This document shows positions 27,445-30,912 of a stretch of 50,088 bases of DNA, in pieces. The notes beneath the pieces were generated by a model. That model made no database searches, was not told the origin of the DNA, and was given only the letters and a program-made list of their open reading frames with translations. Origin of the DNA: an uncultured Eubacteriales bacterium (GTDB taxonomy: Bacteria; Bacillota; Clostridia; Peptostreptococcales; Anaerovoracaceae). The position numbers and the translations under genes were made by a program. The stretch covers positions 1 through 50,088 of the forward strand of contig CADADV010000015.1 in the NCBI GenBank assembly GCA_902786815.1, read 5' to 3'. The stretch's first letter is position 1. Every line of letters starts with the position of its first letter.

Positions 27445-30400
27445 ATGGACACGATCATCAGAGAATCGATCGATTTTTCGAAGACACCGGGGTTTGACCC
27501 GGATAATCTTAAAGCAGCTGTTACAAAGGCTTCCATCGACAGGGACACGCATGTGCTGAGTCTGTCGATGGAGCTTAATTTTGTCGTGAGCGAAGAAACA
27601 GCGGAACATATCAGAACGAATATCAAGCGTTCCATGCCCGGCATCCGGGACGTGGAGCTCGCTATCGAATACAAGAACGTGCTTGGGACCGAAGTGCCCG
27701 CGCCGGTGAAGAAGGCGCAGGGGGATGCGGGAAACGGCAGTGCTGAAGCAGGCGGATCCGGCGAAAAGAAAAACTACCATAAAGGCGGTAAACGCCGCAG
27801 GCGCCAGGGATACCAGCCGGTCAAAGGCAACATCATCATGGGCAGCGCCATCAGCAAAGAATGCATGCCCCTTGATCAGATCGATTCCGAAAGCGGCAGC
27901 GTCGCATTCGAAGGAGAACTGTTCAACAAAGAAGCCAGAACCATCAGCGAAGAGCGCAAGCTGGCCAGTCTTTATGTGACAAACAAGAAGACCAGCATCT
28001 GCGTGAAAGCTTTTGTACATGATAAGAAATGGGATGATTTTGAAACTTACCTGCCCGGCGGAACGCAGGTGAAAATCGAGGGAAACGCCCAGTGGGATCG
28101 GTACGACAATGAAGTGACCGTCATGGCGGACAGCATCGAGCTGACAGAGAAGAAGGAACGCCGCGACGAAGCATCCGTGAAGAGGGTGGAGCTCCACTGC
28201 CATACGAAGATGAGCGCCATGGATGGAGTCATCGTCACCAAGGACCTGGTGAAGAAGGTCGAAGGCTGGGGGCATAAGGCCCTTGCCATCACGGACCACG
28301 GCGTCGTCCAGTCATTCCCGGACGCAGCAGGCGCAGCGAAAGACATCAAGATCATCTACGGCTGCGAAGGTTACCTGCTGGATGATGAAGGCCTCATCCG
28401 CGCGGACGGCTCCATCGATTACAAAAGCCGTAAAACGAATCACATCATCATTCTGGTGAAGGATCTGACCGGGCTGAAGAATCTGTACAAGCTCGTGTCA
28501 AAATCACATATCGATTATTTCTACTACAGGCCGCGCATCCCCAGATCTGTGCTGAACGAGCACAGGGAAGGGCTCATCCTCGGTTCCGCCTGCGAGGCGG
28601 GAGAACTCTATCGGGCCATCCGTGATGGAGAGCCGGAGGAAAAGATCGAGAAGATCGCGTCCTACTATGACTATCTGGAGATCCAGCCGCTGATCAACAA
28701 CTGGTTCATGATCGCAAACGGCATGGTGGACAGCGATGAGGATCTGAAGGAAATCAACCGCAAAATCGTCGCGCTCGGAGAGAAGCTGGGCAAGCCTGTC
28801 GCAGCAACCTGTGACGCCCACTACTTCGACGAGGAGGAAGCGCTGTACAGGCGGATCCTCCTGGCAGGACAGGACTTCAAGGACGCGGAGAGCGGCCAGG
28901 GACTGTACTTCCGGACCACAGAGGAGATGCTGGATGAATTCTCCTACCTGGGCGAGGAAAAGGCATACGAAGTCGTCGTCACGAATACGAATCTGATTGC
29001 AGACATGACGGAGCCCATCCGACCGGTGCCGAAGGGCAAGTTCCCGCCGCACATCGAGGGTGCGGAGGAATATCTCAGGGAGGCCTGTGAAACCAGAGCG
29101 GCCGCCATGTACGGCAGCCCGCTTCCGGATGTTATCAGACAAAGGCTGGATAAGGAACTCAACTCCATCATCGACAATGGCTATGCGGTCATGTACCGGT
29201 CCGCGGAAATGCTTGTCAACAAATCCATGGAAGCCGGGTATCTTGTCGGCTCCCGGGGATCTGTCGGATCCTCTTTCGCAGCGACCATGTCGGGCATCAC
29301 GGAGGTCAACCCGCTGCCCGCCCACTACCTGTGCCCGAAATGCAAAAACATCGAGTGGGACGAAACAGGCGAATACGACTGCGGCGTGGATATGCCGGAC
29401 AAGGTATGTCCTGTCTGCGGCACTCCTTACAGCAAAGAGGGCTTCACGATCCCGTTCGAAACCTTCCTGGGCTTCGAAGCCAACAAGGAACCGGATATCG
29501 ACCTGAATTTCGCGAACGAGTATCAGGGCATTGCCCAGAAATACGTAGAAGAAATCTTCGGCGCGGAGAATGTATATAAGGCAGGTACTATCTCGACTGT
29601 CGCGGAGAAGAAGGCGTTCGGCTATGTTGCGAAGTACTTTGAGGATCTGGGACAGCAGGTGAGCAAGTACGAAATGGACAGGCTGGCGAAGTGCTGCGAG
29701 GGCGTCAAGGCCACCACGGGACAGCATCCGGGCGGCGTTGTTGTCGTGCCGAGAGATCACGAGATCTTCGAATTCTGTCCGGTGCAGCGGCCGGCCAACA
29801 ATATGAAATCAGATGTGGTGACGACCCACTATGATTACCACTCTATCGACCAGAACCTGCTGAAACTGGACATCCTGGGACACGATATCCCGTCCATGTG
29901 CAAGAACCTCAAAGACCTGACAGGTGTGGATCCGTTGGACGTTCCCATCAAGGATGACAAAGTCATGTCCATCTTCATCGGGACAGAGGGACTGGATATC
30001 AAGGATCCGGACTATAAGTTCACCCACGGAAGCTACGGCATCCATGAGTTCGGAACGTCTTTCGTCCGGCAGATGCTGGATGACATCCACCCTGAAACCG
30101 TAGAGGAACTGGTCCGGATCTCCGGACTTTCCCACGGGACTGACGTATGGTTGGGGAACGCCCAGGACCTGGTCGTGAACGGCATAACGACCATGCGCGA
30201 GGCCATTGCCACCCGTGACGACATCATGAACTATCTGCGGAAGAAGGGACTTGATAACGGTGACGCCTTCACCATCATGGAAAAAGTCAGGAAAGGCAAA
30301 GGCCTCACAGAGGAGCAGGAAATGCTCATGATCGAGCACGACGTACCGGACTGGTACATCGGTTCCTGCAAGAAGATCAAGTACATGTTCCCTCGCGCCC

Positions 30401-30912
30401 ATGCGGTGGCATATGTCATGATGTCTCTGCGTGAGGCTTATTACAAGGTCTATCATCCGCTGGAGTTCTACGCTGTTTACTTTACGACTAAGGTGGCGGC
30501 CTTTGATGAAAGCGTGATCTTACGGGGACAGAAGGCGGTAGAGGACAGGATGGATGAGATCGACCGTCTGGGCAAAGCCGCAACGAAAAAGGAAGAGAGC
30601 GAATACACTGTTCTGGAGGTCGCCTACGAGATGTACGCCCGCGGTTATGAGTTCGCGCCGGCAAGGCTGGGCGTCTCTGACGCATTGAAATTCCGTGTTG
30701 CCGACGGCAAAGTCGTGCTTCCTTTCGTCGCCATCACAGGCATGGGAGAAGGAGCCGCGACTGCTTTTGCAGACGGATACAATCATCGTCCTTATGAAAC
30801 CGTTGAGGATGTGATGGAACGGGGCCATGTGAACAAGACTGTGATCGAGCAGCTCCGCGCCGACGGCGTTCTGGAAGGTCTGCCGGAAACAGCCCAGATC
30901 AGTTTCTTCTAA
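27445..30912 (+). CDS. polC: PolC-type DNA polymerase III alpha subunit lacking the exonuclease domain
   Basis: The 1155-residue replicative polymerase has an N-terminal domain, a basic linker at about 85-130 (NYHKGGKRRRRQGYQP), an OB fold, and a PHP domain from about 248 (VELHCHTKMSAMDGV). The four-Cys zinc site lies near 629-660 (CPKCKN and CPVCG). The polymerase core has the catalytic PDIDLNF at about 683 and LLKLDILGHD at about 805, and a C-terminal domain follows. Typical PolC is about 1430 residues and has a DEDDh proofreading exonuclease inserted in the PHP domain after the YGVEGYLVDD-like strand. Here that strand (IIYGCEGYLLDDEG) runs within about 20 residues into NHIIILVKDLTGLKNLYKL. 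No DxExTG or later exonuclease motif exists anywhere. The frame is intact, so this is a domain loss, not a broken gene. Confidence 0.95.
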   Translation: MDTIIRESIDFSKTPGFDPDNLKAAVTKASIDRDTHVLSLSMELNFVVSEETAEHIRTNIKRSMPGIRDVELAIEYKNVLGTEVPAPVKKAQGDAGNGSAEAGGSGEKKNYHKGGKRRRRQGYQPVKGNIIMGSAISKECMPLDQIDSESGSVAFEGELFNKEARTISEERKLASLYVTNKKTSICVKAFVHDKKWDDFETYLPGGTQVKIEGNAQWDRYDNEVTVMADSIELTEKKERRDEASVKRVELHCHTKMSAMDGVIVTKDLVKKVEGWGHKALAITDHGVVQSFPDAAGAAKDIKIIYGCEGYLLDDEGLIRADGSIDYKSRKTNHIIILVKDLTGLKNLYKLVSKSHIDYFYYRPRIPRSVLNEHREGLILGSACEAGELYRAIRDGEPEEKIEKIASYYDYLEIQPLINNWFMIANGMVDSDEDLKEINRKIVALGEKLGKPVAATCDAHYFDEEEALYRRILLAGQDFKDAESGQGLYFRTTEEMLDEFSYLGEEKAYEVVVTNTNLIADMTEPIRPVPKGKFPPHIEGAEEYLREACETRAAAMYGSPLPDVIRQRLDKELNSIIDNGYAVMYRSAEMLVNKSMEAGYLVGSRGSVGSSFAATMSGITEVNPLPAHYLCPKCKNIEWDETGEYDCGVDMPDKVCPVCGTPYSKEGFTIPFETFLGFEANKEPDIDLNFANEYQGIAQKYVEEIFGAENVYKAGTISTVAEKKAFGYVAKYFEDLGQQVSKYEMDRLAKCCEGVKATTGQHPGGVVVVPRDHEIFEFCPVQRPANNMKSDVVTTHYDYHSIDQNLLKLDILGHDIPSMCKNLKDLTGVDPLDVPIKDDKVMSIFIGTEGLDIKDPDYKFTHGSYGIHEFGTSFVRQMLDDIHPETVEELVRISGLSHGTDVWLGNAQDLVVNGITTMREAIATRDDIMNYLRKKGLDNGDAFTIMEKVRKGKGLTEEQEMLMIEHDVPDWYIGSCKKIKYMFPRAHAVAYVMMSLREAYYKVYHPLEFYAVYFTTKVAAFDESVILRGQKAVEDRMDEIDRLGKAATKKEESEYTVLEVAYEMYARGYEFAPARLGVSDALKFRVADGKVVLPFVAITGMGEGAATAFADGYNHRPYETVEDVMERGHVNKTVIEQLRADGVLEGLPETAQISFF

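What the first reader, a model, noticed from the sequence alone, without database searches (positions are those of the whole stretch)
27445..30912. PolC without a proofreading exonuclease domain
The frame is intact from OB fold to C-terminus and keeps the PHP, zinc-binding and catalytic Asp motifs. It is only 1155 residues long, against about 1430 for typical PolC. The DEDDh exonuclease normally inserted within the PHP domain is absent: the strand IIYGCEGYLLDDEG passes within about 20 residues to NHIIILVKDLTG. Because PolC is the main replicase of Bacillota, this organism must proofread in another way, for instance with a stand-alone DnaQ-like subunit or DnaE, or tolerate a raised mutation rate.
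Basis: partly seen in the sequence, partly recalled or inferred. Interest (0 to 1): 0.82.

Follow-up and report, generated by a model that had tools for sequence, protein, structure and literature searches.

The report
Replicative polymerase missing its proofreading domain
An uncultured relative of the Clostridia copies its DNA with a PolC polymerase that has cleanly lost its usual error-correcting nuclease domain and probably corrects errors with an older metal-dependent nuclease site in the same protein; this layout was already known, but here it marks a whole lineage in which the enzyme seems to be on the way out.

Summary
The ORF at 27445-30912 (+), 1155 aa, is an intact PolC in which the DEDDh exonuclease is replaced by a 24-residue loop; it is the only PolC over cut-off in its genome. 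It is no assembly accident: 34 of 37 genomes of the genus show the same junction, 3 could not be judged. Exo-less PolC has been in print since 2013 (PMC3919608), so the architecture is known. What the tools add: (1) each complete exo-less PolC read (59 distinct) keeps all nine PHP metal ligands, as does DnaE1 in 119 of 119 readable rows; (2) no PF00929 exonuclease is found in the window's genome or in 24 of 32 chosen near-complete exo-less relatives, while MutS1 is in 48 of 48 tested; (3) the exo state changed many times among clostridial PolCs; (4) in the window's family the trees fit one exo loss, then loss of the whole polC gene inside the exo-less clade. Best reading: proofreading has passed to the PHP sites of PolC and DnaE1, and PolC is a replicase in decline. 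Nuclease activity and mutation rate are untested.

The parts
27445..30912 (+). polC, PolC-type DNA polymerase III alpha subunit without the DEDDh exonuclease (1155 aa, stop codon included in the coordinates)
27445..27684 (+). N-terminal alpha/beta subdomain (residues 1-80); a second N-terminal segment of about 100 aa present in longer relatives is missing
   Evidence: predicted strands and helices; N-terminal alignment
27892..28149 (+). OB-fold region (residues 150-235)
   Evidence: strands in the model; Pfam tRNA_anti-codon match below its cut-off
28183..28368 (+). PHP domain, first part, with metal ligands H251 H253 D284 H285 E308
   Evidence: Pfam PHP
28369..28440 (+). 24-residue loop (309-332) where the exonuclease sits in other PolCs; linker LIRADGS between flanks still shared with exo-bearing family members
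28441..28830 (+). PHP domain, second part, with metal ligands H333 C383 D457 H459
   Evidence: 3f2b and 9qpc read Asn at the position of D457
29062..30474 (+). polymerase core (residues 540-1010)
   Evidence: Pfam DNA_pol3_alpha and DNA_pol3_finger; alignment to 3f2b
29332..29418 (+). four-cysteine zinc motif C630 C633 C655 C658
29494..29502 (+). catalytic D684-I685-D686
29869..29871 (+). third catalytic Asp, D809
30895..30909 (+). C-terminal QISFF, in the place of the PolC clamp-binding motif (motif recalled, binding not tested)
   Evidence: sequence; consensus of 19 exo-less PolCs ends QxSLF

Best explanation
This is a clostridial PolC that lost its inserted DEDDh exonuclease by a clean, in-frame, domain-sized deletion in a distant ancestor. 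Polymerisation uses the unchanged PolC core. Proofreading has most likely passed to the nuclease that was there already: a frayed 3' end enters the PHP domain of the same polypeptide, where nine residues (H251 H253 D284 H285 E308 H333 C383 D457 H459) would hold a three-metal centre, as in M. tuberculosis DnaE1. The partner DnaE1, also with an intact PHP site, would proofread its own synthesis, and MutS1 would remove what remains. With two PHP nucleases in the cell the DEDDh domain became dispensable; in sister genera PolC itself followed. Shown: absence of the domain, its recurrence, ligand conservation, no detectable DnaQ, presence of MutS1, order of losses on the DnaE tree. Inferred: that PHP is an active proofreader here, and how the two polymerases share the fork.
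For: Nine of nine PHP ligands in the window's PolC and in each complete exo-less PolC read, 60 of 60 rows (59 distinct; the window is in twice), plus 2 PolCs with a degenerate exonuclease. The partner DnaE (genome C4:90022-93597, 1716.5 bits, over the NF005298 cut-off) has the same nine, as do 119 of 119 readable DnaE rows of 121 fetched. Two PolCs of solved structure, 3f2b (G. kaustophilus) and 9qpc, read Asn at the position of D457. PMC5636811 (passages) says that G. kaustophilus PolC has one ligand mutated and shows no exonuclease activity there, that the DEDD domain of PolC is inserted in a loop that in Mtb DnaE1 lines the PHP groove, and that PHP is the essential replicative exonuclease in mycobacteria. 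The window's loop is 24 residues, close to the 20 of DnaE. No PF00929 match in the genome, in 27 of 37 genus genomes, window included, or in 24 of 32 chosen exo-less family genomes of 96% completeness or more. MutS1 in 48 of 48 genomes tested. The 3f2b crystal, which lacks the exonuclease (PMC3919608 figure legend), still holds DNA and dGTP (entry title), so the core keeps its fold and substrate binding without it.
Against: No activity was measured. PHP ligands are also intact in 123 of 125 exo-bearing PolCs sampled, so retention alone does not show a new role, and PHP drift relative to the polymerase core is only slightly lower in exo-less pairs in most distance bins, and not in the two nearest (pairs not independent). 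Some exo-less genomes do carry stand-alone DEDDh proteins: 10 of 37 in the genus, 8 of 32 in the family set, 6 of 19 in other exo-less families and 4 of 4 in f45; 4 of 16 genomes have strong PolC-type matches and 2 more weak ones. The window's genome is 91.9% complete. The structure model is middling (mean pLDDT 76; residues 256-261 beside the PHP site under 50) and says nothing on metal binding. The PolC sample is not random.
Confidence: 0.64

Rival explanations
1. PolC here is a secondary polymerase without need of proofreading: DnaE1 replicates most of the chromosome with its own PHP nuclease, and exo-less PolC does short or special synthesis, so selection on its fidelity is relaxed. Unlike the best explanation, PolC's PHP site need not proofread.
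For: In the window's family all 28 PolC-less DnaE rows lie in a 38-row set that otherwise holds 8 exo-less and 2 unjudged rows; holding the exo-less rows apart from the PolC-less ones is rejected (p-AU 0.0016). The window and three relatives have also lost an N-terminal segment. PMC3919608 (passages) raises the same possibility.
Against: Polymerase and zinc motifs are invariant in the 19 aligned and the nine PHP ligands are intact in all complete exo-less PolCs read, which relaxed selection does not predict; PolC is kept in most of the family draw (88 exo-less plus 13 exo-bearing of 139).
Confidence: 0.22
2. Proofreading is done in trans by a separate exonuclease that the searches missed: a diverged DEDDh protein, another nuclease fold, or a gene in the missing 8% of the assembly.
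For: Other exo-less species carry stand-alone PolC-type exonucleases of 235-243 aa: Heliobacterium mobile, Cuneatibacter sp. NSJ-177, an Epulopiscium MAG and a Lachnospiraceae MAG. Ten of 37 genus genomes have some PF00929 match, three of them strong.
Against: No PF00929 match in 9 of the 11 genus genomes of 94% completeness or more. The three strong genus matches lie beside serine recombinases or an integrase, and two carry a BRCT-like tail (recognised by eye), so they look mobile; G020 is also 7% contaminated.
Confidence: 0.11
3. The lineage tolerates a raised error rate, corrected only by MutS.
For: MutS1 present in 48 of 48 tested; small genomes (1.1-2.8 Mb in the genus).
Against: Both replicases keep a complete PHP nuclease site. 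No mutation-rate data were found or made.
Confidence: 0.06
4. Assembly or binning artefact: the exonuclease was dropped by misassembly.
For: The genome is in 45 contigs.
Against: Same junction in 34 of 37 genus genomes and the domain in none; also in named isolates of other families; frame open, flanks conserved.
Confidence: 0.005

Closest known systems
Exo-less clostridial PolC (Timinskas et al. 2013, PMC3919608; passages seen)
   Same: PolC without the Exo insertion in PHP, nearly all in Clostridia and Negativicutes, paired with DnaE1; given as 6% of PolCs and 16% of those in PolC+DnaE1 systems
   Different: The passages seen do not give the PHP state of exo-less PolCs apart from others, a count of losses, or an order of exo loss and polC loss
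Typical PolC (G. kaustophilus 3f2b; 9qpc)
   Same: OB, PHP, polymerase core, zinc motif, catalytic Asp; best sequence and fold matches
   Different: Those enzymes bear a DEDDh exonuclease (absent from the 3f2b crystal) and read Asn at one PHP ligand; the window's lacks the exonuclease and has the ligand
Mycobacterial DnaE1 with PHP proofreading (PMC5636811; abstract and passages seen)
   Same: Nine PHP ligands, and a loop, not a domain, between ligands 5 and 6
   Different: A DnaE, not a PolC; its exonuclease is measured, the window's is not
Engineered exonuclease-deficient S. aureus PolC (PMC3656037; listing only)
   Same: PolC studied without exonuclease activity
   Different: Laboratory construct versus natural, old loss

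Membership tests
PolC-type DNA polymerase III | match over the curated cut-offs of TIGR01405 and NF001688 | tested here: met
   1289.9 and 1404.2 bits
PolC-type DNA polymerase III | DEDDh exonuclease inserted in the PHP domain | tested here: not met
   24 residues between PHP ligands 5 and 6; no RNase_T match
PolC-type DNA polymerase III | zinc motif and three catalytic Asp | tested here: met
PolC-type DNA polymerase III | OB fold N-terminal to PHP | tested here: met
   model strands and alignment to 3f2b from residue 143; Pfam OB match is below cut-off
PolC-type DNA polymerase III | pair of N-terminal subdomains | tested here: not met
   one only in the window and 3 other rows; the second segment present in 5 other rows of or near the genus. 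PMC3919608 notes that these domains vary
Exo-less clostridial PolC (PMC3919608) | PolC lacking the Exo insertion | tested here: met
Exo-less clostridial PolC (PMC3919608) | co-occurs with DnaE1 with an intact PHP site | tested here: met
   DnaE at C4, 1716.5 bits to NF005298, HHDHEHCDH; DnaE1 rather than DnaE3 is inferred from the intact site and the model, not from a DnaE1/DnaE3 tree
PHP-proofreading polymerase (Mtb DnaE1 type) | nine metal ligands | tested here: met
PHP-proofreading polymerase (Mtb DnaE1 type) | measured 3'-5' exonuclease | not testable with these tools
   needs purified enzyme
Polymerase with a DnaQ/epsilon subunit | stand-alone DEDDh exonuclease in the genome | tested here: not met
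   no PF00929 match in G000; genome 91.9% complete

The most novel reading that the evidence does not exclude
A clade of Clostridia replicates with two C-family polymerases and, in its core genome, no DEDDh proofreader at all, relying on PHP nucleases in both; the loss of PolC's exonuclease was the first step of a replicase takeover that ends, in sister genera, with DnaE1 alone.
Probability: 0.45. Interest if true: 0.62.

Novelty: new member of a known kind. Interest (0 to 1): 0.42.

Why it matters
The DEDDh domain is usually treated as the hallmark and proofreader of PolC. [quoted passage not shown] The data here show the other path in Clostridia: repeated whole loss of the exonuclease, and in one family (f45) a degenerate exonuclease, with PHP intact in every complete case read. 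This gives natural test cases for PHP proofreading in PolC, bears on how PolC and DnaE1 share work in the clostridial replisome, which PMC3919608 called experimentally uncharacterised, and offers an ordered series (exo-bearing PolC, exo-less PolC, no PolC) within one family.

Tried and rejected
Hidden exonuclease elsewhere in the frame: no RNase_T match. Second polC: none over cut-off. A 738-aa ORF on C5 that matched the PolC profile in pieces is a DnaB-PolC-fragment fusion, not a replicase. The exo-less state as primitive: rejected because exo-less PolCs are scattered among exo-bearing ones and a family member that keeps the domain shares its flanks with the window. PHP retention as proof of a new role: not accepted as proof, since exo-bearing clostridial PolCs keep it too. 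A slower PHP clock in exo-less PolCs: the difference is slight and not consistent at short distances, so it is not used. Papers on GC content (PMC3774996, parts 1 and 2 of 3 read) and strand asymmetry (PMC5291525, passages) bear only indirectly. tRNA, Rfam and composition scans of the window gave nothing on the question. A second helicase-PolC fusion in G034 was suspected and not found. A viral-contig scan for the fusion found no relative.

Rows dropped before counts: 5 partial PolCs (L029, L045, L061, L098, L113), of which L045 comes from a frame with two in-frame TGA; 2 DnaE rows with unreadable ligands; 4 unjudged DnaE rows (G131, G200, G102, G095) were kept in the tree but left out of the clade tests. 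Counts of exo-bearing, exo-less and PolC-less genomes were made by hand from the listings; that the sets add up to 139 without overlap was checked. The PolC loci are best-scoring matches, not a random sample. The count of label changes cannot tell loss from regain.
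Full report
CHECK OF THE OBSERVATION. The ORF at 27445-30912 on the + strand has 1155 codons and no stop; the stop-to-stop frame is only two codons longer. It is PolC by two curated equivalog models, far over their cut-offs. Pfam shows PHP, DNA_pol3_alpha, fingers and HHH_6, and no RNase_T domain. In the six-frame search of the window's own genome the PolC model matches at 27877-28392 (profile 2-175) and 28414-30909 (profile 373-1211): the exonuclease positions are not there. 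Nine PHP metal ligands were located (H251 H253 D284 H285 E308 H333 C383 D457 H459). Between the fifth and sixth lie 24 residues, against 208-219 (once 243) in 125 exo-bearing PolCs and 13-25 (once 38) in the exo-less ones. The four zinc cysteines and D684, D686, D809 are invariant in 19 aligned exo-less PolCs and align to the same residues of 3f2b.

NOT AN ARTEFACT. Of 37 genomes of the genus (window included), 34 show the same junction (a piece ending near profile 175 and a piece starting near 373 in one frame or on one contig); G001, G027 and G032 could not be judged; none shows the domain inside PolC. Of 24 other genomes of the order, 22 carry the exonuclease in PolC and 2 are fragments (counted by hand). 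Among named records, Heliobacterium mobile DSM 6151, Cuneatibacter sp. NSJ-177, an Epulopiscium MAG and a Thermosyntropha MAG have exo-less PolC. Each of 16 exo-less genomes searched whole has a single PolC over cut-off; one of them (L045) has two TGA inside the frame.

HOW IT WAS LOST. In a family member that keeps the domain (L151) the text reads EGYLLDDEG, exonuclease, IDYKTKGTNHIILL; in the window it reads EGYLLDDEG, LIRADGS, IDYKSRKTNHIIIL. The flanks survive and the domain is gone, so this looks like a loss, not a primitive absence. On a PolC tree of 186 rows built without the insert columns, the exo-less label needs 12 changes, at least 10 forced by well-supported branches (11 and 9 for the exo-bearing label; quick tree, LG+G4); such counts cannot tell loss from regain. 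Cuneatibacter sp. NSJ-177 (exo-less) pairs with Cuneatibacter caecimuris (exo-bearing), a young case. In an even draw of 142 near-complete genomes of the class, 23 are exo-less, in 7 families (f1, f16, f19, f21, f53, f54, f57); 4 more (f45) have a long frame in which the exonuclease part of the model is not matched; 8 show no PolC; the remaining 107 are by subtraction (by hand). In the two f45 sequences read, the insert is 327-347 aa and lacks the three DEDDh patterns that I searched for.

WHO PROOFREADS. In the window's genome no protein matches PF00929, and 27 of 37 genus genomes have no match; among the 11 genus genomes of 94% completeness or more, 9 have none. In a chosen set, 24 of 32 exo-less family genomes of 96% completeness or more have none, all 13 exo-bearing ones have one within PolC, 8 of 11 PolC-less ones have a stand-alone protein, and so do 6 of 19 exo-less genomes of other families and 4 of 4 of f45. 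So some exo-less and most of the tested PolC-less genomes do have a DEDDh protein of unknown role; the window's lineage mostly has not. Three strong stand-alone hits in the genus (G020, G027, G032) sit beside recombinase or integrase genes (recognised by eye). By contrast the PHP site is complete in each complete exo-less PolC read: 60 of 60 rows, 59 distinct, plus the two f45 rows. Exo-bearing PolCs keep it in 123 of 125; the exceptions are L028 and the long-branched L030. DnaE keeps all nine ligands in 119 of 119 readable rows out of 121. The two PolCs of solved structure read Asn where the window has D457, and PMC5636811 (passages) reports a mutated ligand and no such exonuclease activity for G. 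kaustophilus PolC, and PHP as the essential replicative exonuclease in mycobacteria. The same paper places the DEDD insertion of PolC in the loop that lines the PHP groove of Mtb DnaE1; the window's loop is 24 residues, that of DnaE 20. MutS1 is present in 48 of 48 genomes tested. The simplest reading is that redundancy (PMC12926913 notes three 'active' proofreaders in most Clostridia, passage) let the DEDDh domain go, and PHP carries the function. That PHP is active here is inference.

POLC IN DECLINE. In a draw of 139 genomes of the window's family, 13 have exo-bearing PolC, 88 exo-less, 3 could not be judged, and 35 show no PolC piece stronger than E 1e-50 (one of them, G131, may hold a fragment); 11 of those 35 are 90% complete or more, and several are pairs from one genus (by hand; sums checked). 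A tree of 121 DnaE proteins puts 9 of 12 exo-bearing rows at the base of the family and all 28 PolC-less rows inside a 38-row set that otherwise holds 8 exo-less and 2 unjudged rows (support 86; a 19-row subset with 15 PolC-less, 3 exo-less and 1 unjudged row has 96). The other 3 exo-bearing rows (G163, G084, G194) fall beside exo-less rows in that tree (support 83), which taken alone speaks against a single loss. Holding exo-less rows together without the PolC-less ones is rejected (p-AU 0.0016). Holding exo-less and PolC-less together against exo-bearing and outgroup rows gives a better likelihood than the free search found (p-AU 0.886), which fits a single exo loss in the family. So the order exo loss, then polC loss, is supported. 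It rests on one gene, a simple model and incomplete genomes, and the PolC-less groups elsewhere in the class (f15, f41, f42) were not placed on a tree. The window and three relatives have lost an N-terminal segment too, still present in five others of or near the genus.

WHAT IS KNOWN. Timinskas et al. 2013 (PMC3919608; passages) reported PolCs lacking Exo as 6% of PolCs, nearly all in Clostridia and Negativicutes (16% of PolC+DnaE1 systems), and wondered whether DnaE1 does the main work there. The finding is therefore a new member of a known kind. In the listings and the passages read I saw no statement of the PHP state of exo-less PolCs or of the order of losses; subscription journals are mostly not held, and supplements were not read. 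A structure model (mean pLDDT 76) matches 3f2b best and adds little beyond the fold.

VERDICT. Observation right; the need for another proofreader is a fair inference, but the proposed stand-alone subunit is not found, and the PHP site is the better candidate. Interest is moderate: known architecture, sharpened into a testable case of PHP-only proofreading and stepwise loss of a replicase.

Noticed in passing
own genome, not in the window: G000 contig C5:7784-10000 (-), locus L410: 738-aa ORF joins a DnaB-type helicase domain (Pfam 1.4e-86) to a PolC-like fragment without the catalytic DxD segment (by eye). Matched at full length in 1 of 81 genomes searched. Neighbours include a PvuRts1I-like restriction enzyme, a DUF2779 protein, a PD-(D/E)XK candidate defence nuclease and an AAA plus M41-like protein: possibly a defence island with mimics of replication proteins.
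   Followed up: partly
L387 and L388 (family f45 PolC): PolC frames of about 1650-1700 aa whose insert between PHP ligands 5 and 6 is 327-347 aa and lacks the DEDDh patterns: apparently a degenerate, enlarged exonuclease with an intact PHP site.
   Followed up: partly
L030 (G048, family f2) PolC: The reverse case: DEDDh motifs present but most PHP ligands changed, on a very long branch.
   Followed up: no
G020:C127, G027:C23, G032:C5 (L211-L213): Stand-alone DEDDh exonucleases, two with a BRCT-like tail, beside serine recombinases or an integrase in 3 of 37 genus genomes (names recognised by eye).
   Followed up: partly
window 27445-27684, with L032, L035, L036: An N-terminal segment of PolC of about 100 aa is missing in part of the genus (4 rows aligned); complete frames fall in two groups, 1149-1197 and 1263-1287 aa.
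   Followed up: partly
DnaE of PolC-less genomes such as G082, G088, G139, G172 and G207 (loci L240, L241, L250, L258, L266): The DnaE match stops near profile position 1074-1085 of 1151 in these, while others (G113, G114, G122, G143) run to 1146-1148; exo-less G127, G130 and G196 stop early too. The C-terminal region looks shorter or diverged. G139 has two DnaE proteins.
   Followed up: no
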